This document shows, piece after piece, positions 1-59,074 of a DNA stretch of 64,000 nucleotides. The stretch is from Edaphochlamys debaryana (lineage: Eukaryota > Chlorophyta > Chlorophyceae > Chlamydomonadales). How positions within the stretch are numbered: position 1 is the stretch's first letter; the number at the start of each line of letters is the position of its first letter. Both the position numbers and the translations under genes were made by a program. Location: positions 186,001 through 250,000 of the forward strand of contig JAEHOE010000102.1 in NCBI GenBank assembly GCA_016858145.1, in the 5' to 3' direction. The notes beneath the pieces are model-generated. The model searched no databases. It was given only the letters and a program-made list of their open reading frames with translations, and had not been told where the DNA came from.

Positions 1-82
1 GGGGGATGTCGATGGGGCTGTGTGGGGCCGGCCCTTTCGGGTCCCGATGTCGAATTCGTTAGCCTCGCTCCGCCCCTTGCAG

Positions 83-10524: not shown

Positions 10525-12163
10525 ATGCCGCGTGCACAGCGCATGGGGCTGACGTGTGCGGCGGCTTTGGGGCTGGTGGTTGCTGCCCTGTGCTGTGCGC
10601 TGGGGCACGGCACGGAAGTCTCGACTGAGGTGGAGCTGCGGACCGGCACTGTCACTCTGTGGTGGGTTGGGTTTGGGCGTGGTCCCCGGTCCGACGTGAC
10701 CTCGTCGAGAACCGATGCGGGAAGCCCACGTGACGAGGTGTAATCTTCTACTCATCCCCACGCTTTGTCTGCAAACGCGCAGGCCGGCTGCGGAGGGCCG
10801 CTTCCCCCGCGCTGATGGGGAGGGCGGCGACAGCCCGCAGCTCTTCCTGGTCAGCTACCGGGCAGGTAGGCACCGGGGGGCGGGGACAGGCTCCTATGGG
10901 CCCTGGGACAGGAGGCACGGCACCTGCCGTCACGCACCGAGACCCTTGAACTTGTCCTCTCCCATCTGCCCGCGCCTGCCCCCAGACACGGTCCAGGCCC
11001 TGAGGGACGACCTGGTGCACCAGGGAGGGGCACAGATACTGGCCATTGCGGCCGAAACCACGTTCCTGGTCCTCGCCACACCTTCGGCCGTTGCCAAGTA
11101 CGGCAGCAGGCACGGCGCGTTCGCGGTGAGTTGTGCAGGGGGCGGAGGGCCGCGCTGGCTGGATGATTCAGTCGGCTTCACTCGCCACCCACGCCCGCCG
11201 CAGGCCGAGTACGGGGCCGGACACAAGGTGTCCCCTGAATCGGTCCGCCTGGTCAAGGCTGTGAAGGAGAGGGCGGAGCACCAGCAAGAGCGCCGCATGC
11301 TTGCATTTGCAGCCGGCAGCGAAGCAACGCAGACAGGGGATGTGGACGAGGGCTCACCTCGATTCGGTGTGCAGACTTGGGATGTGGTGTCACGGACCTC
11401 GCGTGGAGTATCCGAGCGCAACTTGCTTGCGTCTCGACCCCAGAAGGCGGCGGAGCTCTTGGGCTCGGCCGTGCAGCTGGTCCCCACTCTCCCGCTGGAG
11501 GACAGGCGGGCCCTGCACCGGGCCTGGCCTAAGCAGCTGGCGGCGGCACTGGGCCGAGGCGAGGAGAGCTCGGACGCCTGCTACCCGAGGGTGGAGGATG
11601 ACGGGCTGTACGGCAGCGGGGGTGAAGTGTGGCTCTATGTCTACCTGTGCGAGGAGGTGAGGTGCGGTCCAGAGGAACGTAAGAGGCGAGAGGAAATTGG
11701 GAAGGCACGTATCTCCATTACTCCCGGCCTGCCTTGTCCCCTCGTCCCCACTCCTCATACCCCCTCATATCCCTTCAGGACCTGGACCGCGGTACCGCCT
11801 GGCTGGCGGGCCGCGGCGAGGTGGTGTGGGTCAAGCCGATGATGAGTCAGGAGCTGCACAACGCAGTCGCGTCAATTATCGTGCAGACGGGTGAGGCGGC
11901 CATGGCGTGGGTCTGTGGATGTGCCCCGCCCCCGGAACGCGGTCGGGAGTCCAGCTGCTGACTGCCAGGACCCAACATCAGTAACACCAGCATCACCCAT
12001 TAACATCATCGGCCATGCAAGCGAATCCGCGCATGAATGCATTTCGCCCTGCTGTATGTCGCGTTCCCCCAGGTGGTCTGGGCCGCGATGCCAACCTCAA
12101 CCCCGGGGCGCAGGCCCGGCCCTTCTGGCAGGCCGGAATCCTGGGCAGCCGTGAGACCGTGGC
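10525..12163 (+). other. Gene B: signal peptide, prodomain and pre-catalytic region
   Basis: Exon 1 (10525-10661) carries the signal peptide. The next exons (starting after the acceptors at about 10783 and 10985) read ...LFLVSYRA and DTVQALRDDLVHQGGAQILA ... ETTFLVLATPSAV. This is the pattern of a subtilase propeptide of the Kp43 type, in which an initial strand is followed by a 'GA-ILgyip-nt-LV' core. Exon 11204-11656 and exon 11779-11890 (VWLYVYLCEE; GEVVWVKPMMSQELHNAVASIIVQTG) complete the region before exon 12074-12163, which leads into the catalytic Asp. Confidence 0.75.
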
Positions 12164-15100
12164 GGTGGGTGTCATGGGCTTGTGTATATGCTGATCTGGA
12201 TGTAGAGACTTGAGAGCTTTCCCTAGGCATGGCTGGAGCGAGGGCCTGTGCTTAGAACTGGCGCCTCAGGTTTCGCACTCCCCGTGGCTATCCTATGCTG
12301 TGCGGACACCCCTTGTTTGCCATGCATGCGGGCTGTGGAAGGCGTCGTGCGGCTGCTGGCTTGCTGTTCCTTGACAGCTTGCCTCTTGCCTCTCCCTCCC
12401 GTCTGCGACACACAGGTTACTGACTCGGGGCTGGTGAGCACGGGGAAGGGCAGGTTCACGGTCCACAATTGTGTGTTAAGAGAAGGCCAGGCACCCAGTG
12501 GCATGGGCGCTAATACTTTCGCATGCCAGGGGGGCCTCCCCCAGGTAGGATTACGTGTCGTACCGCTTATTGGGCGTGACGTGTTGCCGTACAGGACCTG
12601 CGCATGTGCGCCTTCCTGGACGAAACAATCCAACCGTACACAATGGTGACCAGCCCGCCCGTGATGCCTGGGAGGCCGGACATCAAGGGATCATTGTTTC
12701 CTGACCACCGCAAGGTCGTACAGTACCTGCTGCCCAGTGAGTCACATACGTGTACGACAAGCAGCTGCTGCTGCGGGAAACCCCGGCATGTCCAAATGCA
12801 TGTCGGGGGTGTAGCACAACCGGTACTTTGTTCCCGAGGCGGAGCTATGGGGCTGTGCGTTTGTGGACTCGCTCCACCCCCCACATGCCCCCTCGACCCC
12901 CACCCTCTCTGTGCCTTACTGCGTAGCGACATCCACCATTGCTGATGTCAACGCTACGCACGGTACGCATGGGCATGAGGTTTCCGTGTGTTAAAGGACT
13001 GAATAGCAGCATGTCAGGTGGCATGGTGTGGGCTGTCTTGTGCCGCCTCCTAATCTGTCTGTCTTGCGTGGGCCTTACTGCGGTTCCCCACAGGCACCGC
13101 GGCGGCAGGCACGGTGGCGGCCTCGACGGGCCCCACGGCGGATGTGGCCTTCATTAATGACACCTACACGGGCGCAGCGCCCATGGCCCGTCTGAGCATA
13201 TTCCAGGCAATCTTCAATCAGTTCAACACCACATACACAGTTCCCTTTCCCCAGGACACAAAGGTTCTGCCGGTGAGAGCTTGTTTGGCAGGGCATGCGT
13301 TGATGCATGGTGATCCGGGATGTCCTTCTTATCCCGGATCCGCCGAGCCCTATGTCCTCCCCATCACACGTGCTACTGTTTGCGGCCAATGACCCGTCCA
13401 ACTGGCGCCCTGCCCACAGTTCCACTACCGCTCTGGTGCTCGTATCGGCTCTGACAGCTGGGGCACTGTGGGCCTGGCGGGCACCGCGTACGACGATTCG
13501 GCAGCTCAGTACGACAGGTTTGCGTTCCGGAACCCGGATTGGCTCTCGGTTGTGGCCGCGGGCAACCAGGGTGAGTCGCGGGGGCCAGGCCACGGCAAGA
13601 TCCTGCGCTTGGGTAGCATACTAGCGCCGCCACCACAATGCCATGGCGCCATGGAGCCTTACGTGATGCCACCCCAGCGACCCTTGCCCTTCTTGCTTAC
13701 TCATTCCTCACTCAGGCACAAATGGTCACATGCCGTCCACTGTCTCGAGCCCCGCCAATGCCAAGGTGAGGACTGGTTGGGCCGCCGGTTAGCCAGGCCG
13801 TCGCACGTCAATGCATGATACGGCCAGCGTGACAGGCGGGCCGTATTAGCGCATGCCACCGCAGGCGTGCCTTGACACGTGTCACCGCAACCCGCGTACC
13901 GCCCCAACCGCAGAACACGCTTGCCGTGGGCGCATCGCTAAACCAGTTTGACGCAAACGTCAGCGCCAGTTCCATCGATGAGCAGTTCCTTTTCACTTTC
14001 CGGAACGGCACCACGGGTGTTGCAGCGACTCAGATTGTGGGATCTCCAAGCGCGGTAAGAGTGTACGGGCGGGAGCAGCCAGTGTGCACGTGGGCAACTG
14101 TGCATTTGGGCAGCCGTACCGGTACTCATGGCCCCGCCTCATAGAAGCCAAGAGATACACGCACAAGCGGCTTGGGTTCCGCTCATAATCAAGGACAACC
14201 AGGCCTGCCCACGTAGCCCTGAAGCATTGAATATGCCGAGTTCCACCACGCTCCCATCCTCCCTTGCCCCCAGTTCCACCCCGTCTCTGGGTCGGCGGCC
14301 GTTTTCTCCAACTGGCAAATCCTCCTGGGCAACGCTACCGGGGTGGGTAACTGTCGGTGTCGTACAGTTGTGGTGCCGTGCCTGCGCGCCATGCCGTGCC
14401 ACTGCAAACTGCCCAAGCGCCATCCGTTTGACGCTTGGACCATCAACCTAAAAAGTTCTCAAACCCGGGCTCGCCCTGCAGAAGACTCTTGACGTTGTGC
14501 TCGCCAACCCGGCCCACGCGTGTGCCCCTCTCATTGGCGGTACCACCGTCTATGGAGGCAACATTGTGCTGATCGACACTGCTCGGCTGCCCGAGTTTGG
14601 CAACATTAATTGCACCATTACCCAACGCGCAAACAATGCCAGCGCCTCGAGCCCCGCAGGCATCATTTTCATCAAGGATGATGATGAGATGGTGCCCAGA
14701 ACCCCACAACCGCCCGCGGGAACTGTGAAGAACTTTGTGTGGATCTCAAGGGTGAGTGCATGTCGAGGGGAATGAGAAACGGGGGACGGGGTTACGCGAA
14801 AAGCAAGGCCAGCAAAGTGCAATCAATATCTCTGGCGTATCGGGGGGCGGCGAGTACGGTGCAGGGGCTGGGTGCGTGTGCAGCGAGTGGCCAATGCCGC
14901 ACGCCTGACTGGTGCCTCGTTCGTTTCGTCCTTCCTCTCTTGCCCCCACAGGCTCAGGGCCTCTGGCTTAAAACCAACATTGCAACGTTGGGCAGCGGCA
15001 AGCCCCTGAAGCTGGCCTACTACACCAACACCTCGGCCTTCCCCGTCAACTCGTTCAACATCAAGGCCATCGCCAACGTCTCGAGCTACGGCCCTGCACG

Positions 15101-18100
15101 CGATGGCCGCATCAAGCCAGGTGGGACAGGGTATGACTTGATTGACAAAGCAATGATGGCTTCATTCAACAGGCAGGTCTGCGGGACCCCATGGCCCGGC
15201 TCACTATAGCACATAGAGCTCACTGACGTCCTCTGTTCTGTGCTCTGTGCTCTGAGAGTACTTCCACGGACCCGAACAGTCTATGACTAATGACGTGCTC
15301 TGACGTGTTCCCCCTGCTCTCCCGCCGCGCATTTGCTTCGTTCGCAGACCTGGTGGCCCCAGGTGGGTGGTGGGCACTGGCGTTTGCAATGGTGGTCCAG
15401 CTGCACTGCCAGCCCGGGATGGGCACGCAGCAGGCCCGCTCGAACCTCACTGCCCCGAGGTTTGACAGGCTGGGTCACGAGTTCATCGCCCCAGACAATC
15501 TCATGGTGGTCCCCGCCCCCTACGCCTGCAGGTCAACTCTTGATGTCTCTTCAGGGTGGCGTGGATCCTCCACCCCCACTCCTCACGAGTAGGTCTGCCG
15601 CATGGCAGCGATCGGCGCTGCAGCTTCGTGCCTTGTTACCTCTCACTGACGCCAAGGATAGTCCCCTACACCAATGCAGCACTCGGCTCAAGCCTGTGCG
15701 TCCTGCCTGCCTAGTAAAGGCCGAACTCGTGCCCTTACCCACTCAGGCACTACCTGCACCCGGGGAACCTCGCTACGATCTGGTGAGTGCATGATGGAGC
15801 AGATTCAACCCAAACGAGCCGCTAGGTCCTGAGTTGAGATCCCGCATGAGCAGGATCCCGCAGAAGCCTCACACTCACAGAGTGCGCTGTCAGGATGTCC
15901 TGTCGTACCCAAGACCCTGCCTAGGAGTCACTAGGCCGCCAGCGAAGCGCGAGTGCCAATCTGTGGACACTGACATTGTCCTGACATCGCCTCTTCTGCA
16001 TCACTTGCAACGCAGGCACTTCGTATTCTGCCGCAACGGTGGGCAGAGGATGCATACATGCGTGTACCGGTATTGGCTCTTCCATCACGCTACGACCAGC
16101 TCTCACGCTCCAGCTCTCTGCCCTCCTCACTGTTTTGGCCACGCTCCTACCTCCACCTCGCAGGCCGCTGGACACCTGGCCCTTGTGCGTCAGTACTTCA
16201 GGTGAGTTTGGTATCGCCATGCTTTAGCTCGTCCCTGCATCTAGTCGATTGCACGTGGCTCCACCCTACGCGCCCTCCGCTCGACCCATGACTCCCTCCC
16301 TCCCTCTCTCCACCCACACGACTCCCCAGGGACGGCTTCTACCCCGAGGGCTTCGTCGGTGGACAGTCGGCCAACTTCACGCCCAGCGGCATGCTGCTGA
16401 AGGTGGGCCCGAGCAGCTACGAGGTTACATGTGATGCCACCTTGTTCCTAGCAGGATGCAAGCTGGGCAGTGAAGAAGGCAAGCACTTTGTCAGCGGTGC
16501 AGCGGTTGACATTTTCCCTCGGCGTGTTCCGCTTCCCGCTGCAGGCTGTTGCCATTGCGGGAGCGGAGGACCTGCAAGGCGGCTTTGCACGCAACCTAGG
16601 AACCCCCATTGCGGCCGCTCCAAACGGGGTCCAGGTACACACGGGCCGCATGGACTGTCCCGGTCGATGTGACACTGGTCACTTCGATCTACGACTTCTT
16701 TGCTTGTACCACATGACCGGTAGCTGGCGTGTCACTATTAGTGCCTTGCAGTGGGGTACCTGCCCCCTGCCGCATCAGACCTAACGCTCCTTCTGTTTGA
16801 CAGCTCGGGCTTTCCCACTTGCCTCGATCGCCATCCTCAGGGCTGGGGCCGCCTAGACCTGTCCAGCTCGCTGCCGCTTACCGGCCTGAACGCCCTGGGC
16901 ACACGGCTCCAGGTGGCTGACAATGGGGCCTTCACGCGTGCGACCAACGGTACCACGGTTACGATGCGCGGCATACGCGCATCGGTCAACGGGTGAGCGA
17001 GGCGGAGACGCCTAAGGAGCGTGTCCTGGCATCAGGAATCGTGTCGAGACGACCCCAACCGCGCTGCTCTGCACCCCGTCCCGTGTTCTTGATAGCTAGT
17101 GCAGGGCACCGAGCACAGACTAAGCTACCTTCGGTTGCGCCGCCCGCCCCTTCCCTACCCAGATTCCTGACGGGCGTGCTGGTGTGGCACGACTTTCCCG
17201 CCGCCCTCATCGCGGCCAAGCAGTTGGTAAACGACCTTGATCTGCTGTACGAGATCAACGGCAACGGAGCGAAATTGCCGATACTAGCTGGTAAGTCTCT
17301 GCGCACCGCGGACGGCAGGCATGGTCGCAGGCTGGCGGCGGGGCACGGGATGCCAATACCCTGGCATCACTTATGGGTACATGGGATTACTGCGTTTGAA
17401 TTGCCGATGTCCGCCTCCCCTTACCCCCAGCCCGGGATACCACCAACAACGTGGAGCGAGTGCGGGTGCCGGTCAAAGCCGGGGACACGGTGACGTTCCA
17501 CGTGCAGGCCACCAACCTGAGGCACGTGCTGCTCACCAGCGACCCTGACGCAGCGCTGCCTCAGCGCTGGGCGCTGGCTGTGATTGGGCAGTTCAAGGGA
17601 GTGCTCGAGACGCCGCTCAACCCCTCGTACCTCGTGGCGCCCAAGTTCACACCCCAGGTGAACCCTTGCCGAGCGAGGAAGTGGGTGAAGGCCGGGTCAA
17701 TGGTGTCATGGATCAACGCATCAACTTGCCCTGCTGAGCCCTTGCTGCACGTCAGCCTTCTTTGTGAAATAGTGTCATGGAGCAACGCATCAACTTGCCC
17801 TGCTGAGCGCTTGCTGCAAGTCAGCCTTCTTTGTAAAGTAGTGTCATGGAGCAACGCACAAACTTGCCCAGCTGAGCCCGCGCTGCACGTCAGGCTTCTA
17901 TGTGACTTGCTTCCTGTGTAAAGTCTCGCTCGTCCCAAGTTTTGCTCAGCTTCTCGGGCTTTCGGACTTGCCCATGTGGGCCATGGGCTGAGCATGCACG
18001 CCTTTGCTAACGCTTGCCGTTGACCGCCATATGCTTGATGGCCTCCCCCCGAACATCAGGACATCACGGCGGGCAGCCCCTTCATGCTCCAGTTCCCGGA

Positions 18101-21100
18101 TGGTCGCTGTGGGCGCGTAAACGGGACGGGCGTGCTGATTGCATCAGCAGATTGCGCGCTAAACTCGGATATGCGGTTCGCACTGTCAGAGGCGACGTCC
18201 TACAGTGAGTGCTCGCACTCACAGCGCCGTTAAACTGGAGGGTGTCATGGAGCCGCACACACATGCGATTCCCGCCCAGCAAAGACCTGCGTGTGCCGGT
18301 CCTGCATCCCTCATCTTCGAAATTGCTCTTTTCCTTTCACGTCCGTGACCACAGGCATCCAGCGGACGCGCCTCGGCACGACCACTGCCGACGCTGGCGT
18401 CAAGTGTTTTACGGTGCCACAGGATAACCAAACTGCGGGAGTGCCCCTGCAGCAGTGGCCGTGCACCACGGGGCAGAACCAGAGTTTCGAGCTGGTCCCC
18501 GTCACAGGTACGCAGGGCCACGTACGCACAGCAGCATACATAGCGGGTCATGGCTGGCGGGGCTCCCGCCCTTCGAGAGTCATCTGCCCATTGCCTGTTT
18601 ACAACCTGAGTGCGTGTGATATGCCCACGCGGTCAGCCCTCCCTCCCGCGCTCCCGGCCATCCAGGCCTCGCCAACACATTCAACGTGCGCACCACCCGG
18701 GGAAAGTGCTGGACCACGGCCGGCAGTCTCGGCGCAGCCGTGGTCCTGGGCAACTGCTCCACGGCAGCGACCTATCGCTTTCTGCTCACCGGATACTCCA
18801 GCGGGTGAGACCGGAAAGGCGGATGGAAGCTGCCATAGGGCTTCGGTCTCATACGTCCCGCCTTTGAATGTTCCTCGCTGCTATAATCATTCATGTGCAT
18901 GGACCTGCCGCGTCCGTCACACTCTCTCACTTTCATCTATTTTGGACTGACCCCTCACTTATTCGCTGTGCCTCCCGTACACCCGCCTACACATCCAGGC
19001 TGTGGTCGCTCACGCCCGCCTCCAACCCCACCGCGTGCGTCGCCGTCAACCAGACCTCCACAACTGATGGGTCGTCCATCCTGCTCGCCACCTGCTCCGG
19101 CACGAGCACCAGTACACTGCAAAACAAGCTTCCCCGCGTACGGTTGATGGACTTCCCAAGGCCAGGCAAGCAAGGGACCTCGGGGCAAGCTAGCAGCAGC
19201 AGCTAGAATGCCGCTGGGTGTACTTTGGGGGGCTGAGTGTTGACGGCGCGGCTTCTGCCAGGCTTCTGCGGGGGCGAACAAAAGTCAGGGTGTCATGGAG
19301 CCACGCACATATTTTCGAATTGTGCCGAGCACGCGCGCCGCACTTCCTTAGCGCTTTGCGCCGTGCCTGCATGCATGTCCAATTGCCCAGCCATTCCAGG
19401 CTTACCTCATTCCCAGCTTTGAGGAAGGTGACATGTGATCTTATCTGACCCAATCATGCATGCCCCACCCAATCATCTGCGCGTGCAGGCATGCCCAACC
19501 CCCAGGGCTTCCGCTACATCATCAAGGACACTCAGAACCGTTGCCTCACGGTGCGGGGCAACACGACCAACGCGCCGGCAACCTTCGAGACGTGCGACGG
19601 CTCTCCTGCTCAGGATATGGCGCTCTTCAACCCCTCGCAAGACGGGTGAGCGCGCGGGACTGTGTGCTGCGGTGCACGGGCACATGCACGCACCGGCACC
19701 ATCTCCATCCTCCGTACTTGCACTTTCCCATAGATTGTGCATGCGTATTTCGTTCCGCTCACTAACTCCCCCATGACGGGTCCTCCGCCGCGCCCCGGAA
19801 AACAGGGTGACGTACCGCTTCGTGCCCCAGACGGTGTGGGATATGACCCAAGGTCCCCGCTTCTGCCTGGATGTTCCGCCGGCCCCTGCCACCGTCCTGG
19901 CTCTCGGGGCCTGCGCCTCGACGGACACGGGCCAGGACATCCGCATCACAGCGCTGCCCCCCTACATGCGCTTCACGGTCGGGTGGTCCCTCGGCGGCGG
20001 CCCGCAGGGTGCGTTCCGCTTGTGGGAAGCCGAGGGTGTTGTGGAAGGTTCCAACCAAGGGTCGGTTGAGCAAAAGGTGTGACAGGCATCCCACGAGCGA
20101 GGCATGGTTCTATCTGGTGGCTTCCCCTTACTGCCCTGCACGTGCGTGCCCGCTTGCCCGCAGAGTGCCCCCGGCCCAACAACTTCTGCAACGGCGTCAT
20201 TTTCCCGGTGTACTGCAATGATACCAACATCAAGAGCTGGGTGTGCATGGACCCCGTGACCAATCGGCGAGGAGTCGTACTGCCGAGCACCGGTTGCAGT
20301 ACGGCGCCAGTTGCAACGGGCTGGCCTACGGCCGACAGCCGACAGTGCCCCGGGTACCTGCCAGGTGGGTGACGGCGGGGAAGGACTGCGTGGCAAGCCA
20401 AGTCCACGCCTTTCACCAATGCCCTCCGCTCCCACACAAGCTGGGCTCGCTGTTGCCATCCGCCTGGCCGCCCGCCCCCATGCGCCCTTGCCCAACGTTT
20501 AAAAGCCGGTTGCGCCCACGCGCGCGCAGGCCCCGTTTACGACATTGGTGTGGGAAGCGACGGCGTCACCCGGCGGCTGTCGTACGCTTCAAACTGGACC
20601 ATCGCTACCGGGGGATCCTTTGCAACCTTCACGACCTCGTTCAACCTCACGGCCCAGCAGTCCTCCATCATCCCCAACCTGGACTTGATATGCGACGACC
20701 GCTGTGAGTGTGCTTGGGCTCATTGCTTTTGCTCAGCTCAAAGCGGCGCGTGGCGTTGCAGGGCTGGGCAGGGGTGACAAGGTCCCTCGGGTTGCAAGCC
20801 CGCATGGGCTCTGGGCAGTACGTTTGGGGAAGCAGGTAGCCAGGCCAACGCAAAGGTACCCTGTGAACTTGTGGCGCTTAAGCCCACAAACCCAATGTTG
20901 TCCCGGCCGCATTAAACCCTCCCCACCCAGGCGACGTATTCATGGATGGCATCCGGCAAGAGAACCCGGTGAACCTCCAGGCCACCCCCACTTCGATTTA
21001 CCTCCGTGGCACGAGCGTGGGGCGCTACGTGCTCTCCGTGGTGGCAGCAAACGGAGGCTCCTCTCCCAACCCCGGGTACATGGAAGCCTCGCTCAAGGGC

Positions 21101-24100
21101 AGTGGCTCGGTCCTCCCGACCACCGGATGGGTTCTGGCGGGTGAGTCCGATGCAACGTGCACGCATGAGTGCTTGAGCGCCCGCGTGCTGAACGGCCGGC
21201 GTGCCGAGCGCGAGTCCCGCAGATAGAGTGCGCATGCACCCCGGCCCCTGACCGCTGCTTGTGCTCCCGCCTCTGCCCGGCCCCCCATTCCCACCTGCCC
21301 CAGACGAGTGGTCGGCTCTGTCCATCCACCCCTTCAGCCCCCCCTGCCCCGAATCCATCACGGAGTGCCTGCCCGGCACCGCCACCCGCTGCGGCCTCTA
21401 CCGCAGCCCTTACACCAGCGACTGGGACCTGCGCTGGCAGTGCAACAAGTAGGTTTGGGGCGAGTGGCAAATTCCTTGGAGCGGCGGAGGTACTGGCTGG
21501 ACTCCGTACATGGAGGGAGCAGAGGGACTGGTACGATGCTAGGGCATTCGGCGGTGGCCCGCAGGCCAGCACCTGTGCGCGCCCGTGGGTGCGGGTGAGG
21601 GACGACGCCTCGATGGATAACCCGCTGCCCCCTCCCCCGCCACACCCCCAGGCTCTGGTCGCCCAATCGCAAGTTTGTCTTCATGATGCGGTGAGGCGCT
21701 AAGGGCTTGCTTTGCAGGCGACTGCCAGGCAGAGCGGGCTGGCCAGGGGCAGAAAGGGTCCCGCGGAAGCATGCGGGGGGCGGTCGGGCCGTCAAGCAAG
21801 GTCCCCCTGTTCTCTTTCTTCACCTGAACCTGTTGTCTGCCCTCTATGGAAGGCGCAACGGTGATCTGGAGCTGTACTACAGTACGGATGGCGCCTCGCC
21901 CTCGGGGCCCTCCGTGTGGTCGTACTTCACGCGAGGCCCCAACCGCAGCCTCATCCTCCGGCCAGACGGCGTGTGGGTCATCCCCAGCGCCCCGGGCGTG
22001 GGGTCCTTCTCCTTCGGGACCATCCAGTCCCAGTCGGGCTACGGAGACGCTAACTACGAGTCGTACTTCCGGTGGGTATGCCGTACACTAGTGCATGCGT
22101 GCATGGGACCTTGGGGACCGTGGATCAGCTTGGAAAAAGTGTTTGAAGCTCGCCAGCAGTGTTCTTTGCATTGGAACGCTCTTACGCTCCTCAACCCGAC
22201 CTGCTTCCCTCACATGCAGCATGACCGTTACGGACGACGGCGTTGTACGGCTCATCGACGCCTTGACCAACGGCTTGGCCTGGTCCAGCGGCCGCCTGGA
22301 GGGCAACCGAGGTGCGCAGGTTGTTGCCTGGGCCCGGACTCGAGTGCAAGACCAAGTCCGTGCGATCCGAAGACGGGACCAGCATCGGATCATGAGCTTC
22401 CCAGCTCCTGCCTCCGTGCGTGACTGCTCTACGGAACCCAGGACAAGATGCATGCGCCTACTTACCTCCTCGCCTCGCCTGTGCCCCTGCCCCGCAGACA
22501 ACTGGATGACCGAGGTCACCACCTCCGTCCCCTTCTTCCTGCAAACCCCCTGTGCCTCCACCATCTCCGTCTGCGCATCGCCGGGCATGCAGACCGAGCG
22601 TGAGTTCACAAGGAAGCCAGCAGAAGCGTAGCTCCCGCAGCAGAGTATGGTTTGGTGCTCCGACGACAGGGCGTTGGGCTAATCTCTTGAGCCACACCTG
22701 GAAGCACTCACCCGCCCCCTTGCCCTCCGTGCCCTCCCACAGCCTGGCGCGTCGAGCGCAACGTCCGCGCGCCGTACGACCCCGCGACTGCCTTCGATGT
22801 GCCAAACGTTCACGGCGCTGAGCACTGTGCCTACCTGTGCGGCCTGCGCTTTGATTGCTGGATGTGGTCCTACGTCCGCGCGACACGAGTATGCACGATT
22901 GCCGGTAGCAGCCTTGGAGGAGCTAGCCAGTCGACCGTGCAGGGGACGGACTCCGGAGTGTTCCAAGGATTGAAGCCCGGGTTGATCAGTGAGTGGTGCA
23001 CGTGTTGGGTGCGGGAGTGCAGATAAAGAGACCCAGGTGGTTCCTGATCCCCGCCTTCACTCCCTGCGCAGACCGCCGCACGGAGTTCGTAAGCACGGCG
23101 ATTTCGTCGTACAGGTCAGTTGGCGGGCATTGTGCCGAAAAGCATGGAGGCGGGTTGTCAGATCGCAAGGTGCCCTACCGGCTGTCGGGGCTTTGGACTC
23201 TGAAGCCTAGGATCAACATGTCTCGTCACATGGCCGACTGAATTCTGGATTATTTTCGCTGGCTCACAGGTGTGGCCTGTACGCCGGCATGGGCCCATGC
23301 TCCTACCTGTGGTCCGAGGACCGATCCCACATGGCTCGTATGGTGGGTGCCGGGGGCGGGGGCCGGCGGCCGGGAAAGCGCGTGACAGCAGGCTCGCAAC
23401 CTGCCGATTGTCTGGCTCTGCAACTACGCTTACCTGTATCATTCCGATGCCTTTCGCGACCACAGCAAGAGGACGGCAACCTGTGCGTCTACTCCATGAC
23501 ATCGGGGGTCAAGTGGTGCTCCAACACGCCAGGCGAGGCTGGACGGGGCGGGACGGAGGGGCATGCCTTGAACTAGGTCTTGGTGCACAAGGCCATCCTA
23601 GTGCGCCTCTCTTGCCTGACAATGCCACGGCGGCTCCTTTGGTTCGCCCGCAGGTCCTTACACCACTCTCTACATCAGTACAGACGGCCGTCTGGTGCTG
23701 TCCGGCCCCACCGATGGAACGAGCTCGCCTCCCAGAGTCACTTCTGACATGTTTGGAACCAGCGCCAAGGGCGCGCAGGACGGAACGCTGGCGCCATTCC
23801 GCTTGGTGCTGACCAATGACGGCAACCTCAACCTCTACAACGATCTGCAGGAGCTCGCATGGACCAGTCAGGCTGGCAGTGAGTGGGGGCGAGTAGATGC
23901 CGACGAAAGGTTGACCGCGGCCTACTACCTGCCGTTGCTGTGGCCCGTCCCTTGTGCTCTGTGCGCCGCTAGCCCTGCTTCAAGCACCCGCTCCCTCCCG
24001 CGCGCCCTGCAGTCTGCAACTCCCACCCTACCACATGGTGCTCCCACTCCACCGGTCGGGTGAGCGCGGGACACGGGGCACGGAAGGAGCGCACAGTACG

Positions 24101-27100
24101 AGGGGTTGAAGGTCACGCCGATCGAGCAGCATGGCTGTGGTGATGTCCCGTGCGTTTGCAATGCTAACGTGTCCTCTTCTATCCACAGCTTCTGCTGGTT
24201 AACTGCGACACCGACACCATGTGAGTCCTTCCACGAGGCGCGGGCGCCTTCCAGCCGCACTGGATGGCCTGTGGTGCACCGTTGCGGATTATATCCCGAA
24301 TCCCGTCCTGATGCCACCCTCTCTCATTCGTGTGCCCCTCCCGCCGTGACCCCCAGCCCCGACTGGGTCTGTGCTGACGTCACCAACGGCTGGTACGGCG
24401 TCATCCGCAGCACCGTGCCCGGCGGACCAAAGGACGCCAACTGCATCTGGTTTAATGAGGTCACGGGATGGCCCTCCGCCCAGTTGGCAGGCGACAGGTT
24501 CTGCCCCGGATATCTCGGTGCGTCGGTGCTTCTCCGAGCCAAGGGTCCGTTACAAGAGCTCGCCAGCAACCTGCGAATCCACTCCCGCTGACCCCGCCGC
24601 CCTTCATACATGCGCCCGCAGACGCCAAGCGCACGAACGTCTGGTCGCCGGCCCCAGCCACGACTTGCGCAGTCAACGCGCCCTCCGGCGCTTGCCCCGC
24701 CTTCGGCCAGCCTAACACGTGCGCCCTCTACAACAAGAATCCCGGTGACACGGACGACGCATCCACCGCCTGGAACGACGCCGGATGGTAAGCGGGGCCC
24801 GAACCTGTGCAGCGGTCCTGGAAACAGCGTCGCAAATGTCCGGGACTGACGTACCGCCTCCGTGCCTTTTGCCCTCGCAGGAACTGCAACCGGTGAGCAA
24901 GACAGGCTGCAGCTCGCGCTGGGCACAGGATACCGCGCTCAGCCATGCGCCTGGAACGCAATAATGGGCAGACTCGTGAAGGGATGGCCGCCGGCCCTCG
25001 AGTACCACTTCCCTCCTCCTGATCCGCTCAGCTGATGCCGGGGCTTAAGCAGATCAGTTTCTTGCTTGCCGCCTCTGCCCCTCCCCGTCAGGCTCTACTC
25101 GCGATCCCGCAAGTACGCTTTGGTGAGAGGGGCGAACCGGCGTATGAAACTGCGCGCAATTGCTGCGCAGGGGGGTCACTGTGAGGCCTGGGCATCTGCA
25201 ATTGTGGCCCTGCCCGGCTGCTCAAAGTGCGGCGTACACTTTCTCGCAGGTGGTCCACGGTTTCAAGGTGTCCTTGTTCGAGTGAGTTGAGACAACGAGT
25301 TTTCTGCAGGTTTCTGTACCTCCCGCGTTGCTATGTCCCCCCCCGCTCCATCCACTCGGTTAGCTTTATAACATCTATGCGTGTGCGATTCCCACCCCAA
25401 TCCCGTACCCGCAGCATGTCGGCTGCCCCACCTACTCGCCTAACAACCATTGCATCGGCGTCGGGAATTACCTCGCTCCAACTTACCGTCGAGGGTCAAT
25501 GTGAGATCGTAGGCGCTGCCATGCACATGCTCGGGGTCGGTTGCCACTGCGTGCACGTCACAAGGGCCCGGAGGCTGGTGGGCGTCGTTTGATGGGTTCG
25601 GGTGGACCTTTAGAATGGCAGGATGGAGCGCGGGCTTAGGGGCCGGTGGGAGTTATGTGGGCTGCAGTTGCGAGGGGATGCAGGCGGGCCTGAGGGAGGC
25701 GATGGCAAGGGTGATAGACGCGGGACGCGGGCCTGCTGTCCTGCGGGCGCATCAATCCGCCCCTGCCCTTGCCCACTCCTCCGCTCGCTATGCTCGCAGG
25801 GTGCATCAACTCAGCCACCCCCTTTTGCTCCAACGCCGCCGACCTCGCTGTGAACGTAAGAGGTTGTGCTCGAAGCCAAAGGATGGGTTTTCACAGTGGC
25901 TTGCATTGCCAGCCATCATGGGTCCCGAGGTCTGATATGTTTGCCGCTTACCGCCCCCGCAGTTCCGGCCCCAGAACGCGGGTCGGGAGAATGGTCCTTT
26001 CAAGATTGAGGTGAACGACGCCGGTTACTGGGCAGGTGAGGTGGGAGCAACGAAGCTTATCTGGGTCTGCGATATGCGAGAGATGCTGCTGCCGTTGCGG
26101 TGACCTGCGCTAATCTTGGTCCACATCTTTGCTCCCGGAACCGCGTGCCTCGTACAGCCCCCACACCCTGGTCCTCACGCTACCTCTTAAACGCCCCCCT
26201 GGTGACTCATACTCCTTCCTCGCACCTGCCCCGCAGTCATCAACAAGAACGGAGACGAGGCTTGGTCCAGCTATAAGGGTGCGTCGGGCGCATGACTGCT
26301 CTCAAGCAGTGGTGGTTTCGCGACAAGACCTTGGCACGTACCCCGCACTCCGCAGTTCATCTGTCCTGCCTGTTTCCCACTCCTGCTCCCCCGCGTTGCC
26401 CCCTGTCGACCCCCCCCCCCCCCAACACCCCCAGTCTGCCAGCAGACCACCCCCACGACTGCCACGCTGCGGTCCTCGTGGTGCCCGGCCCCTGCTGCGC
26501 TGGTGCACGCCAACTGCGATCGGGACACCGCTGTCGCCCTGAACCCGGGCGCCACGGGCCCCCTGATGGACGACGGGGTGTGCATGGACCTGAACACAGG
26601 CGCCATCGGGGTTACCCTGTCCAGCAGGTGAGCATGCATCACGAGCGCTGCAGCCAGCAAGCGAGGCTACAAGGGGTTTCCGGTAGTGAACGCTTGCGGC
26701 TCATCAAGGCCTACCCAGCCCTGCCTTCCCCCAACTGCCTTCTCACCCTCGCTCCTCCTTTCCGCTCGCTAATCTGCCCCCAGGACTTGCAACCTTGCCA
26801 ACGCCACCACAGCCTGGCCCGCAGCAGCGTACAATCTGTGCCCCTCGGTCATCCCAGGTGGGAGCGCGGCTGGCAGGGAGGCACGGGGTACCGGTGACTC
26901 CTTATCGCATGGCATTCGGAGAAGTCAAGGGGTGACGTCCTTGCCCCCCTTCCTCCCTTGGCTCGCCCTCGCCGCCCCAGCCGCCGTCACCTCTCTGTCG
27001 ACCACACGGGCTGCGTGCAGCGCGCAGCAGCCGCTGACCGCCTGCGCCGGCCCCGCGGGCCAGGCCTGCAGCATCGCATCCAACCTGCCCTGCAACTCGG

Positions 27101-30100
27101 TCACCTCGCCCAGCGGCAGCCTGCAGCTGAGGGTCAAGGATTCCGGCTGGATCGGGCTCTACGAGTTGGGCAAAGTGAAGTGAGTGCTATCGAGATCGAG
27201 ACCTACCGACAGCTCTGGCCAATGTTGCAATCTAGGTCTGGGTCAGGCGCAGGAAAGAGTCTCCCCTGGTCAGGCGTCAGAGCGGGGGCAAAGGTTGGCA
27301 CAGGGCACAGAATGCTCCTACTGGCTCACATTGTCTTTCCACAACAGGACATGGGTGGTCCCAACATCCCGGAACGCGAGCACCCGCAACCTCGTCCTGA
27401 ACACCGACGGGACATGGCTGGTGACTAACCCCGGGCTTCTCGCCAGCCCGCTGGTCCGCACCAGCGCTGCTGCGGGGCCCTTCCGCCTCACCCTGGACGA
27501 GTGGGAGGGCAGCCTCAGCATCCGCGATGCGGCCGGGCAGGAGGTCTATACCACGGCGCCAGGTGCGTTGGTTGGATTGGTTGCAGGCACCTCAGCTCAA
27601 CGGGCTGAGCTGCTTAGGAGGCAGCAGCTGCAGCTGCTTTTCAAACATGAGAGTATCTGTGCCTGCCACCCCCGCAGTTTGCCCCCGGCCCCCCACCTGG
27701 TGCTCTGACGGCGTGCTGAGTCTCGTGGAGTGCGGCGACGGCGGCGCTCGCGACTGGGTGTGCAACGGCAGGGGAGGCACGCGGGCTGTCATTTCGAGCA
27801 GCAGGGGCTGTGACGCAACTGACGCCATTACCGGATTCGTGAGTGCATGGGAAGATTACGGCATTGGGCTGGATGGGTTGCTTGCGCAAAGTCATTGGCT
27901 CAGTTGTGGCCTGGGTAGACGGACAGGGCTGGGGGTTGCACGTGCACCAGCCTCACCAGTTGCTCCATGACACCCGCAACGACCCACGGGCCAACCTCTC
28001 CCTGCAGCCCTACGCGCCCAACTTCTACTGCCCACTGGTGTTCCAAAGCGGTGAGCGGCGTGCTGCGCACAGGGGCTGACATGCCTGCTTCGATGCACAC
28101 AACAAGCCTGTATCACTACCCAGTCTGTTGTCAGCCCCTTGTGTCATGGCACCAATGGACAGTCTGTTGTCAAGCACCGCTGCCACAGCTTGTACACCTC
28201 ACACTGACGTGTCTGCCCTGCATCCCACCCTCCGTAGATGTTCACAATGCCCTGATGAACGTACGGATCATCCGCACCTGCCCCTTCGACATCACGGCGT
28301 GCCCCAGTACTGCTGCCGAGGTGGCGGTGCCCTGCGCGCTCTATGCCAACCCCGGCGGAACAGCGGGCCAGACATGGCCGGTGCGTGGGGTGCATTAGCG
28401 CTCGCACCGTCGTTTCTGCATCACTTGCTTCATGCAAATCAGGCAGTTCTGGCTTGCCGCGGTGGGACAGATAGAGTGATGGCATCGCTGCGCTCCTTCG
28501 CTGCCCTGACTTCCCGCCCCCCAGTGCGACCGCCTGGACTCGCCCTCGCGTCAGTACTACCTAGCCATGCGCAGCAACGGCAACCTGGAGGTGGCCAGCA
28601 CGTATGACGACACGGTCCTGTGGTCCAGCAACACGGCGGGCAGCGGCGCGAGGTCGCTGCAGGTCCTCCGCGACGGCACATGTGAGTTATGCACGGCATT
28701 CACGGCAAGGCTGTAATATCCGCGAGGGAGCGCGAATCATATCTCTCTCACTCTGGAATGTTTCTTTCTCGTTCCCTCGCGCAGGGTCGATTGTGCGCAA
28801 GGATGGTTCCCTGGTGCTGCGCTCAACGAGCCTCAACACGGGTAGCACCTTTTCAGCATTTGCGGGCGAGGCTCAGGGCCCCTTCCGGCTGCACATTTAC
28901 GATGACGGCACCATGGCGTTGCTCAACCGCAACCTCAGGGAGGCCTGGACATCGCGCAAGGGTGAGTGCGAAAAGGACTTGTTGTGTGGAGCTAGACGCT
29001 CTCGGGACAGAGGTTGGGGAGCCAGCCGACCAGCCCGGCCTTGAGTAACCTGCACATCAAACCACTGGTACGGTACGGCGCTCTCTCACCGCCCCTTCGC
29101 TTGCCCTACTCTTGCGCTCTACACAAACCTGCGCAGCTTGCGCCCCGGCCAATGGCGGCGCCGGCTGGTGCACTGCCGCCGGGGACGTCATGTTCCGCCT
29201 GGACTGCGATGGGGATGGACTGATAGACGTGGCGTGCCGTACAGCTACCGGGGTGCAGACGACCGTACTGTCGACGCGCAGCTGCCAGAGGCGTGTCAGC
29301 AACAACGCCGAGTGCCCCGCGGTCTTCATGGGTAAGCGGCGGCGTGTTGACGAAGGCAGGGGCGGGGGCTTGGGGTGGGCCCGAGGACTTCCCCAGGATC
29401 GAAAAGTCTGTCCCAGGGCCACGCACCCGCCCCCGATCGTCGGCGGTGCATGGGTTATGCCGTGATGGGCACGGAGCTTACAAGCGTGCAACATTGTTCC
29501 GCACTGTAGCTCACACACGCCCTTTGTCCTGCTAATCCCATGCAGCCGCCAACCCCGATCCCCTGGGCATCGAGCTAATCGTTTCGTGGCGTAACACCGT
29601 CAACCAGCTTCGCAGCGTCATGCTGGGTAGACCTGCCCTCACGGGTGTGCACGAGGGCGATAATGCAGCCGTAACTCCGCTGGCCGCTCAAACTGAGAGC
29701 ATCTTCTTCAAGTCGAACGACGGTCAGCCGTTCCCGGAGACCGGGACCTACTGGGCCTGCCTGAGGCGGGTCAGCAACAACTCTGTTGTGCCCAACGCCA
29801 ACGCCGTGTATGTGCGCTACGCAACATTTACGTTCAACATGAGCGGCGCTCCCCGCGATCGGGGCTTCATGCGCCTTGACACCATCCCTACCAACGCAAC
29901 CTCCTGCTCGCCCACGGACCCTGCCTTCGTCTTCGCCACGTCCTACACGCGACCACCGTCACCACCCCCGCCCTCGCCGCCTGTGTGAGCCCTTGCGCCA
30001 TGTCTGGCGTTGCGCACACCGCTCGCCCCCTCTGCCGCTGCCGTGTTGTGTCGTCCTCTGCTGAACCGCTCAGTGCTCTAACCCTCCCTGGCCGTGCCCT

Positions 30101-30636
30101 TACGCGATGTCTGCCGCAGGCCCCCCAAGCCCCCAAGCCCAGCTCCTCCGCCAAGACCTCCGAGCCCCCGGCCCAAGCCCCCAAGCCCAGCTCCCCCGCC
30201 TCGGCCCCCAAGCCCAGCTCCCAAGCCCAGTCCCCCGAGGCCGCCCGTTCCCCCGCCTCGGCCCCCAAGCCCTGCTCCCAAGCCCAGTCCCCCGAGGCCG
30301 CCCGTTCCCCCGCCTCGGCCCCCAAGCCCTGCTCCCAAGCCCAGTCCCCCGAGGCCGCCCGTTCCCCCGCCTCGGCCCCCAAGCCCTGCTCCCAAGCCCA
30401 GTCCCCCGAGGCCGCCCGTTCCCCCGCCTCGGCCGCCAAGCCCTGCTCCCAAGCCCAGTCCCCCAAGGCCGCCCGTTCCTCCGCCTCGGCCCCCAAGCCC
30501 TGCTCCCAAGCCCAATCCCCCAAGTCCGCCCGTCCCCCCACCTCGGCCGCCAAGCCCAGCTCCCAAGCCCAAGCCCCCAAGTCCACCCATTCCCCCGCCT
30601 CGGCCCCCCAGCCCGCGGCCGCGACCCCCAGTATAA
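10525..30636 (+). CDS. Gene B: secreted Kp43-like subtilase fused to lectin, PAN, cysteine modules and an HRGP tail
   Basis: A single multi-exon gene of about 20 kb with dozens of exons. The start ATG (10525; alternative in-frame ATG at 10543) opens a hydrophobic signal peptide (MGLTCAAALGLVVAALCCAL). Exons then encode a prodomain, the subtilisin core with all catalytic motifs, a Kp43-type C-terminal beta domain, ricin-like segments, bulb-lectin repeats, a PAN domain, five copies of a cysteine module and a 19-residue Pro repeat, ending TAA at 30634-30636. Exon phases join in frame wherever I checked (signal peptide to 17.65 kb, and several exons downstream). It should be secreted and act in the wall or matrix. 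Known volvocine wall-digesting subtilases (sporangin, VheA) make a wall-lytic role plausible, but I cannot say it is their orthologue. The alternative is two adjacent genes split somewhere in 17.7-25.6 kb; gene A's matching architecture and the absence of an internal stop and start argue against that. Confidence 0.8.
12416..17655 (+). other. Gene B: S8 subtilisin catalytic domain (Kp43-like)
   Basis: The catalytic Asp lies in VTDSGLD (GAC 12422-12424) on an 18-nt microexon (12416-12433). The catalytic His lies in the THGTHGHEV segment (candidate codons CAC 12959-12961 or CAT 12968-12970). The oxyanion Asn is in VVAAGNQ (exon 13419-13571). IKP-DLVAPG spans a 15-nt microexon (15348-15362). The catalytic Ser is in GTSYSAAT (TCG 16021-16023) on a 23-nt exon (16016-16038). 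After it come AAGHLALVRQYFR, GWGRLDLSSSLP and LVNDLDLLYEI, then the TTNNVERVRV...VTFHVQ beta domain typical of Kp43-type subtilases. Phases join exactly across the Asp and Ser exons. The domain looks active apart from the unusual His motif. Confidence 0.88.
14482..14751 (+). other. Gene B: PA-like insertion in the protease
   Basis: An exon following the FHPVSGSAAVFSNW exon reads KTLDVVLANPAHACAPL, then GGNIVLIDTARLPEFGNIN and PAGIIFIKDDDE. This is the strand-and-Cys pattern of a protease-associated (PA) domain, inserted between the Asn and Ser motifs, where subtilases of plants and Kp43-like enzymes often have it. PA domains usually govern substrate access or binding; that role is inferred here. 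Confidence 0.65.
17702..17915 (+). repeat. Three tandem ~70-bp repeats in a gene B intron
   Basis: Units start near 17702, 17772 and 17842. Each contains GTGTCATGGA(G/T)CAACGCA followed by CAACTTGCCC(A/T)GCTGAGC and CTTC(T)TTTGTG. They lie in the intron between the exon ending at 17655 and the next at about 18061. The first 12 bases of each unit match the end of the inverted-repeat element at 32278-32813. Confidence 0.85.
18061..20020 (+). other. Gene B: ricin-B-like lectin segments
   Basis: Exons after the protease encode repeats with a Cys-V/T start and a QxW-like end: CFTVPQDNQTAGVPLQQW..C with QSFELVP (18353-18507), CWTTAGSLGAAVVLGNC (18663 on), ACVAVNQTSTTDGSSILLATC (19000 on), CLTVRGNTTNAPATFETC (19493-19648) and FCLDVPPAPATVLALGAC (19805 on). 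The pattern fits a beta-trefoil (ricin B type) carbohydrate-binding fold. Whether the sugar-binding residues remain intact cannot be judged by eye. Confidence 0.6.
20161..25900 (+). other. Gene B: cysteine module, beta segments, bulb-lectin repeats and PAN domain
   Basis: The first cysteine module (NFCNGVIFPVYC, WVCMDPVTNRRGVVLPSTGC, CPGYLPG) lies at 20161-20367. Unassigned beta-rich exons follow (20530-20700, 20932-21140, 21303-21448). Bulb-lectin-like repeats appear at 21855-22075 (NGDLELYYST, ILRPDGVWVI) and 23463-23880 (EDGNLCVYS, TNDGNLNLYN). Exon 22741-22987 is PAN/Apple-like (AEHCAYLCGLRFDCWMW ... RVCTIAG). A second cysteine module runs through 24012-24520 (WVCADVTNGWYGVI, FCPGYLG). 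Exon boundaries are approximate here, and some short exons near 24.6-25.9 kb are not placed. Confidence 0.55.
25960..29985 (+). other. Gene B: lectin/cysteine-module block duplicated in gene A
   Basis: Alternating bulb-lectin-like repeats (TWVVPTSRNASTRN...LNTDGTWLV at 27355-27560; MRSNGNLEVAS at 28567; VRKDGSLVLRS at 28793; IYDDGTMALLNRN) and three cysteine modules (26434-26855, 27678-28050, 29130-29330), ending with a beta-rich domain (29546-29985; WRNTVNQ ... FNMSGAPRDRGFMRLD). The block is collinear with gene A 83-4230. Several stretches, such as 26945-27150 against 1119-1320, are nearly identical, intronic bases included. Confidence 0.8.
30121..30636 (+). repeat. Gene B proline-rich tail with seven 19-residue repeats
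   Basis: The last exon encodes PPPRPPSPAPKPSPPRPPV repeated seven times. Five copies are alike at protein level; then come variants with NPPSPPV and KPPSPPI and a closing SPRPRPPV. At DNA level the unit is 57 bp and the middle copies are nearly identical. Such (S)PPxP tracts are hydroxylated and glycosylated in volvocine wall proteins. Gene A's tail differs in repeat type and number. Confidence 0.9.
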
Positions 30637-58586: not shown

Positions 58587-59074
58587 GGCTAAACGGTGGG
58601 TCGTCGGCGGCAAGCTCAGAATCAGTCGCGCATGGCCTTGCAAACTGTCGCGGGGTATAACGCTGTGGAGTGAGTCGCGTTGATGCTTGGAGTGCAATTG
58701 GTATTGATGCCGGCAGGCTGCACAGCTGGGTCAGTGCACTGGGACCGCATCTCCTGGCTGGGGCTCATCCGGCACCCGCTTGCAAAGATTCACCTCTCAC
58801 CCCGGCACGACTGCAGGCGTTTACAGGAGCTCCATCACACCCTCAATTGACAACTGCGCAGGCCAGTCGGGCCCTTTCGGTGGCCGCACTGTCCAACAAC
58901 CTGCACTTTGAGGAACCCTCGAGAGCGCCCAGACCCTATCAGCAAGTACTCAACGTCCACACTGTCGCGTTTAAAGCAAGCTTACGGCCTCGCGCCCGTC
59001 TGCGATAGAACACTCGCGCGCGATCTCAGAGCTTCTCGTTATTCAAGCCGACCCGGCTTTCTAGTCTCGGAAAA
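58587..59074. promoter_or_regulatory. Shared upstream region of PSY (-) and SEM1 (+)
   Basis: Only 488 bp separate the two start codons, so promoters and 5' UTRs of both genes lie here. A TTATA-like motif on the - strand near 58655-58660 is about 70 bp from the PSY start. About 295 bp of this region (58587-58881) is duplicated in inverted orientation at 60710-61011. No specific light-responsive element could be assigned by eye. Confidence 0.6.

What the first reader, a model, noticed from the sequence alone, without database searches (positions are those of the whole stretch)
10525..30636. A subtilase welded to a lectin array and a hydroxyproline-rich tail
One gene appears to encode signal peptide, prodomain, Kp43-like protease with PA insert, ricin-like, bulb-lectin, PAN and cysteine modules, and a 19-residue HRGP repeat. 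Known volvocine hatching enzymes are subtilases, but I do not know of one described with this lectin load. The design suggests a protease tethered to wall glycoproteins or glycans.
Basis: partly seen in the sequence, partly recalled or inferred. Interest (0 to 1): 0.78.

Follow-up and report, generated by a model that had tools for sequence, protein, structure and literature searches.

The report
Protease carrying a sugar-binding array
A green alga has a tandemly duplicated gene for a very large secreted-looking protease fused to a row of sugar-binding-type domains and a wall-protein-like proline-rich tail, which suggests a protease built to sit on the cell wall, though what it cuts has not been tested here.

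Summary
The window is Edaphochlamys debaryana; 10525-30636 (+) reads as one 68-exon gene for 3,043 residues: signal-like N-terminus, pro-region, intact KP-43-type subtilase with PA-like insert, ricin-type trefoil, five bulb-lectin-like domains with Cys modules, a weak PAN, a conserved C-terminal domain and a proline-rich tail. The deposited, unnamed model HYH03_014294 is identical except for one 61-residue gap, but stops before the tail. Comparison supports the tail: 7 of 8 paralogues carry one, in three without an intron; in A's repeats 11 of 17 changes are silent in the proline frame, against 2 and 1 in the others. Eight collinear paralogues (7 with the C-terminal domain) under purifying selection argue for one gene. 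Five other volvocine species and one E. debaryana locus (C80) share protease and C-terminal domain without the array, so the lectin load looks lineage-specific. The wall-tethered-protease idea is plausible and untested. Kinship with sporangin is not supported: this core is KP-43-like, sporangin is described as furin/PC7-like. A subtilase-ricin fusion is already reported (Saprolegnia), so this is a new variant of a known kind. No expression, substrate or glycan evidence was available.

The parts
10525..10661 (+). exon 1: start codon and hydrophobic signal-peptide-like N-terminus (MPRAQRMGLTCAAALGLVVAALCCALG...; called by eye)
   Evidence: same start in deposited P0001
10783..12164 (+). exons 2-6: pro-region (about residues 46-339), no Pfam hit; exon 4 (11204-11656) read continuous, unlike deposited P0001
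   Evidence: conserved in paralogues and partly in volvocine relatives
12416..17657 (+). exons 7-26: KP-43-type subtilase, Asp (VTDSGL), His (THGTAAAG), oxyanion Asn (AAGNQG), Ser (SGTSYSAA), with PA-like insert and C-terminal beta-sandwich part
   Evidence: Pfam S8 3.6e-28 residues 335-807; 1wmd E 1.5e-27; motifs
14482..14751 (+). exon 15: PA-like insert within the protease
   Evidence: PF02225 20.5 bits as single exon, below cut-off 23.9; passes cut-off in P0005-P0007
18060..20008 (+). exons 27-32: ricin-type beta-trefoil region
   Evidence: PF00652 43.6 bits, 2 stretches
20164..20364 (+). exon 33: Cys module 1
20530..21140 (+). exons 34-35: unassigned segment, conserved in paralogues
   Evidence: alignment; no Pfam hit
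21304..22311 (+). exons 36-39: bulb-lectin-like domain 1
   Evidence: alignment with the other four
22498..23114 (+). exons 40-42: linker and PAN-like segment (exon 41, 22743-22988)
   Evidence: PF00024 17 bits for an ORF over exon 41, cut-off 21.4; conserved in paralogues
23270..24517 (+). exons 43-48: bulb-lectin-like domain 2 (QEDGNLCVY) and Cys module 2
24622..26857 (+). exons 49-58: bulb-lectin-like domain 3 and Cys module 3
26981..28050 (+). exons 59-62: bulb-lectin-like domain 4 and Cys module 4
28238..29331 (+). exons 63-66: bulb-lectin-like domain 5 and Cys module 5
   Evidence: PF01453; fold match to monocot mannose lectins
29546..29984 (+). exon 67: C-terminal domain shared with volvocine relatives (DxDLxVAW...GGDN...YxxCVRW...C...GY), no Pfam match
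29985..30119 (+). intron 67 (GTGAGC...CCGCAG); the deposited protein ends at the stop 29986-29988 inside it
30120..30636 (+). exon 68: hydroxyproline-rich-type tail with 57-nt/19-aa repeats, ends RPRPPV-stop
1..4763 (+). 3' part of the upstream tandem paralogue U (deposited HYH03_014293), incl. its C-terminal domain (3782-4189) and proline-rich tail (from about 4391)

Best explanation
One gene, a member of a lineage-specific tandem family, encodes a secreted subtilisin-type zymogen. Shown by sequence: KP-43-type catalytic domain with complete triad and PA-like insert, ricin-type trefoil, five bulb-lectin-like/Cys-module units, a C-terminal domain common to volvocine relatives, and a proline-rich tail. 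Inferred: after secretion the pro-region is removed; the lectin array docks the enzyme on glycans of hydroxyproline-rich wall or matrix glycoproteins, and the tail, itself hydroxylated and glycosylated, helps it associate with the wall, so that proteolysis is confined to that surface during wall remodelling or release of daughter cells. The array was most likely added on the Edaphochlamys lineage to an older volvocine core (protease, trefoil-like segment, proline-rich linker, C-terminal domain).
For: Model and Pfam; deposited single model of identical sequence apart from a 61-residue gap, made with BRAKER from one stranded RNA-seq library (passages of PMC8226300). Collinear protease-plus-array in 8 of 8 paralogous loci examined, 7 with the C-terminal domain. 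Triad: Asp and oxyanion Asn motifs 8 of 8, His 8 of 8, Ser 7 of 8, not seen in C92d. dN/dS 0.08-0.55 in 39 of 39 computable cells (8 pairs x 5 parts, one cell without data), protease and array alike. KP-43 match, bulb-lectin fold. Tail frame test. Array-free relatives in five species and at C80 and a tree with the six array copies included as one clade, 100/100.
Against: No transcript, protein or activity data seen. Of five deposited models seen, two (P0016, P0017) end inside the trefoil, one (P0003) in the second lectin domain, and P0002 lacks the N-terminal exons and part of the C-terminal domain. Most lectin sites do not keep the recalled mannose motif, so binding and sugar are unknown. No localisation evidence; hydroxylation of the tail is assumed. 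PAN and PA are below Pfam cut-offs in this gene. dN/dS uses only codons that align by similarity (2,108-2,621 of 2,872 per copy), which favours low values.
Confidence: 0.6

Rival explanations
1. The protease and the lectin/HRGP part are two adjacent genes that were duplicated together.
For: Deposited models of two C92 copies end inside the ricin region (1,085 and 1,073 aa), and P0003 ends in the second lectin domain.
Against: The three ends fall at three different exons, each inside a domain and at or just past an exon end. The deposited proteins of A and U run from protease to C-terminal domain. The A model splices through with no in-frame stop. Order is kept in 8 of 8 loci down to about 48% identity.
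Confidence: 0.07
2. The tail exon is not translated: the protein ends at 29988 as deposited and the repeats are 3' UTR or a separate gene.
For: Deposited P0001 ends there; the donor overlaps the stop, so a retained intron gives that product.
Against: Contiguous tails in C92a-c, phase-matched introns in A, U, C128a, C128b, RPPV ends in 6 of 7; silent changes favoured only in the HRGP frame. The deposited U protein also runs into its repeat exon, in another frame.
Confidence: 0.12
3. The enzymes are not for the alga's own wall but act outward, binding glycans of bacteria or other microbes as a defence or feeding protease.
For: Bulb-lectin profile and fold matches include lectin-like bacteriocins (pyocin L1/L2, putidacin L1/LlpA); the same genome has an expanded SRCR/C-type lectin orthogroup (passage of PMC8226300); tandem expansion fits variable targets.
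Against: The proline-rich tail and the C-terminal domain shared with colonial relatives point to the matrix; fold similarity shows no target; SRCR/CTL are different families.
Confidence: 0.2
4. They are the species' hatching autolysins proper.
For: Chlamydomonas hatching uses a subtilase (sporangin, PMC8643629 passages); a protease with wall-binding-type parts would suit the task.
Against: Known sporangin is described as PC7-like and type II membrane (PMC6313938 passages), not KP-43-like. No cell-cycle data. VheA is recalled only; no sequence compared.
Confidence: 0.15

Closest known systems
Volvocine KP-43-type subtilases without array: V. carteri VOLCADRAFT_106328 (P0005), V. africanus (P0007), Pleodorina (P0006), Astrephomene Agub_g14014 (P0004), C. 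incerta HXX76_012202 (P0008), E. debaryana C80
   Same: S8, PA-like insert (PA over cut-off in 3 of 5 deposited ones), trefoil-like segment (ricin profile seen below cut-off in 3 of 5), proline-rich stretches, 1-3 copies of the same C-terminal domain
   Different: No bulb-lectin match at E <= 1 in 5 of 5; query coverage only 28-36%; the two Volvox proteins end in a transmembrane-like stretch by eye
KP-43 and SubHal alkaline proteases (PDB 1wmd, 5fax)
   Same: Catalytic domain and C-terminal beta-sandwich part align, E 1.5e-27 and 2.5e-25
   Different: 434 and 433 residues in the chains; no counterpart of the PA-like insert in the alignment shown, no lectins or tail
Sporangin/VLE1 (Cre01.g049950)
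   Same: Volvocine S8 protease acting on wall (as described in PMC6313938 and PMC8643629, passages)
   Different: Described as 1,117 aa type II membrane, PC7-like; no lectin array mentioned in the passages seen
Saprolegnia parasitica subtilase with ricin lectin domains (SPRG_15005)
   Same: Subtilase fused to ricin-type lectin (PMC3681718 passages)
   Different: Oomycete; no bulb lectins or HRGP tail mentioned in the passages seen; sequence not compared
Monocot mannose-binding (bulb) lectins, e.g. gastrodianin 1xd6
   Different: 17-28% identity in the bulb-lectin rows; mannose motif mostly not kept

Membership tests
Peptidase S8 (subtilase), KP-43-like | S8 profile over curated cut-off | tested here: met
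   99.1 bits against 21.8
Peptidase S8 (subtilase), KP-43-like | Asp/His/Ser triad and oxyanion Asn | tested here: met
   VTDSGL, THGTAAAG, SGTSYSAA, AAGNQG in gene A
Peptidase S8 (subtilase), KP-43-like | Closest solved relative by sequence is KP-43 | tested here: met
   1wmd 1.5e-27; only other match SubHal
Peptidase S8 (subtilase), KP-43-like | Proteolytic activity | not testable with these tools
   needs recombinant enzyme
Sporangin/VLE1 | Catalytic core closest to proprotein convertases (as stated in PMC6313938) | tested here: not met
   No convertase among PDB sequence matches at E <= 0.001; VLE1 itself not compared
Sporangin/VLE1 | Expression at division/hatching | not testable with these tools
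   no expression data
Ricin-type beta-trefoil lectin | PF00652 over cut-off | tested here: met
   43.6 bits against 29
Bulb-type (GNA-like) lectin | PF01453 over cut-off | tested here: inconclusive
   27.9 bits against 32.4 for A; 4 of 14 rows of A2 match at E <= 0.1
Bulb-type (GNA-like) lectin | beta-prism II fold | tested here: met
Bulb-type (GNA-like) lectin | mannose motif QxDxNxVxY (recalled) | tested here: inconclusive
   near matches QEDGNLCVY and TNDGNLNLY, both in domain 2; a third loose hit (YGDANYESY, residue 1668) lies off the aligned sites
PAN/apple | PF00024 over cut-off | tested here: inconclusive
   17 bits (single ORF) and 10.3 (whole) against 21.4
PA domain | PF02225 over cut-off | tested here: inconclusive
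   20.5 and 15.2 bits against 23.9 in A; over cut-off in P0005-P0007
Hydroxyproline-rich glycoprotein | Long Pro-rich repeats (PPRPPSPAPKP...) encoded in frame | tested here: met
Hydroxyproline-rich glycoprotein | Proline hydroxylation and O-glycosylation | not testable with these tools
   needs protein chemistry

The most novel reading that the evidence does not exclude
A lineage-specific arsenal of about eight lectin-guided wall proteases: in Edaphochlamys a bulb-lectin/Cys-module array was inserted between the trefoil and the C-terminal domain of an old volvocine subtilase and then multiplied in tandem, so that the sugar-reading array, not the active site, sets which wall is digested and gives the species its own lytic specificity.
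Probability: 0.17. Interest if true: 0.78.

Novelty: new variant of a known kind. Interest (0 to 1): 0.55.

Why it matters
How volvocine algae dissolve one wall (a mother's or a partner's) without harming their own is an old question. If a protease carries its own glycan-reading array and a wall-like tail, specificity could reside in binding rather than in cleavage, which is directly testable by domain deletion. The same-genome array-free gene (C80) and array-free Volvox relatives give natural controls. The shared C-terminal domain had no Pfam match in 15 of 15 rows and the Cys module none here, so both look like unnamed matrix-protein modules.

Tried and rejected
Whole-genome search with PF00082 did not list this locus among its 32 matches; the search runs exon by exon; single ORFs gave only weak Pfam hits. 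PF01453 genome search found nothing, and its controls also rang nowhere, so it says nothing. Rfam gave 0 matches in the window. My own gene finder joins neighbouring genes when run on whole stretches, so it was used only inside bounds set by homology; on C92c it still gave three pieces. Some first exon choices (tiny exons at 17872, 19400, 20762, 20836, 21516, 25171, split exon at 12595) were dropped or replaced after alignment with paralogues. The C-terminal-domain model was poor (mean pLDDT 63.8) and Foldseek gave no match at E <= 0.001; PDB profile search 0 matches: no fold is claimed. FMG1-type ciliary repeats as a source of the Cys module were considered; the passages read (PMC12021028) gave nothing for or against. 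Literature: the listings of searches (0 papers) and 85 of the held open-access library, and the passages read in five papers, showed no account of this gene or of a subtilase with a bulb-lectin array; most subscription papers are not held. A chance or artefact reading was rejected. The Cys module fold was not separately tested.
Full report
What the window is. The window is G000:C102:186001-250000 of a 141.9 Mb, 502-contig assembly. The best protein match to the gene is HYH03_014294 of Edaphochlamys debaryana on a contig of 478,567 bases, the length of C102, so the species is E. debaryana, a unicellular volvocalean green alga.

The gene. A small Viterbi gene finder seeded with peptides visible in the ORF list, corrected by comparison with paralogues, gives 68 exons from ATG 10525 to stop 30636, 3,043 aa, introns of 78-402 nt, 65 GT-AG and 2 GC-AG. 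The deposited model P0001 was seen only afterwards. All of its 2,811 residues are in my model, including those of the exons of 12, 15 and 18 nt and across both GC donors; the one difference inside its span is 61 residues of exon 4 that it removes and that U and C128 copies keep. It ends at the stop at 29986-29988. PMC8226300 (passages only) says these models came from BRAKER with one stranded RNA-seq library per species, so the tiny exons may rest on reads; I did not see the reads.

The tail. In A the C-terminal-domain exon would run into TGA at 29986. A GTGAGC donor at 29985 and an acceptor before 30120 are phase-matched and open the frame PPKPPSPAPPPRPPSP..., which ends RPRPPV-stop at 30636. 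Other in-phase acceptors inside the repeats are possible. U, C128a and C128b have the same layout with phase-matched sites; in C92a, b and c the proline-rich tail follows the domain without an intron; the eighth copy, C92d, has no detectable C-terminal domain. So 7 of 8 copies have the tail, six ending RPPV and one RPPA. Among 17 differences of the seven 57-nt units of A from their consensus, 11 are silent in this frame, against 2 and 1 in the other frames. This supports translation of the tail and suggests that the deposited model is short.

Single gene. tblastn shows protease, trefoil, array and C-terminal domain in the same order in U (C102), C128 a and b, C92 a, b, c, and protease to last Cys module in C92d. 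Identity of mapped codons to A is 0.82 (U), 0.64 and 0.63 (C128), 0.48-0.50 (C92). dN/dS is 0.08-0.55 in all 39 computable cells of 40, protease and array alike; mapping by similarity biases this downwards. Against: deposited C92 models P0016 and P0017 end in the trefoil, C128b's P0003 in the second lectin, and U's P0002 lacks the first exons and part of the C-terminal domain. The three early ends differ between copies, lie inside domains and at or just past exon ends, which looks like annotation breaks, but shorter isoforms are not excluded.

Origin of the array. A search with the whole protein gave 15 proteins at E <= 0.001 among 7,982 scored candidates; only the three E. debaryana ones cover the array, and five other volvocine proteins cover 28-36%. 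The array alone gave one hit, P0003, among 7,991 candidates (P0001 and P0002 are too long for that search). The other volvocine proteins have S8, in 3 of 5 a PA match over cut-off and in 3 of 5 a ricin match below cut-off, and no bulb-lectin match at E <= 1, with one to three copies of the same C-terminal domain: a profile of four E. debaryana copies gave weak scores at first (best 0.0009 in the deposited proteins) and strong ones in all five after iteration. At C80 the same genome has a gene with protease, trefoil-like segment, C-terminal domain and proline-rich end, and no room for the array. In a tree of 26 S8 domains the six array copies included form one clade (100/100) within a volvocine group (100/99), C80 joins C. 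incerta (88/90), and the array clade is next to the colonial species only weakly (82/72). The simplest reading is gain of the array on the Edaphochlamys lineage; loss elsewhere is not excluded. A query of two Cys modules and a lectin gave 119 exon matches, many in the family's own loci on C102, C128 and C92 and the rest on 27 further contigs, including a place 13 kb downstream in this window near WSC domains, so the modules are common in the genome.

Function. What is shown is an intact, conserved, secreted-looking protease with a glycan-binding type of array and a wall-type tail. That it is held on the wall and acts there is inference. Polybasic stretches in the pro-region of copies and relatives (for example RRRLERR in P0003, RRRRR in P0016, read by eye) suggest convertase maturation; this too is inference. 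Sporangin is described as PC7-like type II membrane (PMC6313938, passages) and is not this clade by the PDB test. Saprolegnia has a subtilase with ricin lectin domains expressed in germinating cysts (PMC3681718, passages), so a lectin-bearing subtilase is not new; five bulb-lectin units, Cys modules and an HRGP tail on one are, as far as my searches reach.

Verdict. Observation confirmed; interpretation partly supported; a new variant of a known kind; interest 0.55.

Noticed in passing
window 38572-46494, minus strand: Neighbouring gene(s) with WSC domains (two ORFs, 2.9e-7 each) and Cys modules of the same type (43536-43691, 44251-44394) followed by a proline-rich stretch: the module is shared by other secreted-looking proteins. 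Whether it is one gene was not settled.
   Followed up: partly
window 58002-58730, minus strand: ORF with squalene/phytoene synthase match (2.6e-8): probable phytoene synthase exon.
   Followed up: no
window 1-4763: 3' end of the tandem paralogue HYH03_014293, whose deposited model drops part of the C-terminal domain and reads its tail repeats in another frame.
   Followed up: yes
window 19166 and 23533 (intron starts): Two GC-AG introns (GCAAGC, GCGAGG) in the gene; the deposited protein agrees with both.
   Followed up: yes
window 17699-17905: Three 69-nt tandem units (88% matches) that lie wholly inside the intron 17658-18059.
   Followed up: no
L038/L026 (C92 fourth copy): Fourth C92 copy lacks a detectable C-terminal domain and its Ser motif was not seen; possibly decaying.
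   Followed up: partly
G000 C47:591605, C34:860526, C34:875600: Further loci with the KP-43-type C-terminal exon (53-62% identity) but no C-terminal-domain match; not fetched.
   Followed up: no
P0005 and P0007 C-termini: Volvox relatives end in a hydrophobic, transmembrane-like stretch followed by basic residues (by eye), unlike the E. debaryana tails.
   Followed up: no
alignment A1; window 29546-29984: C-terminal domain shared by volvocine subtilases has no Pfam match (0 of 15 rows); invariant V, W, D, N, E, P and two Cys in 15 rows.
   Followed up: partly
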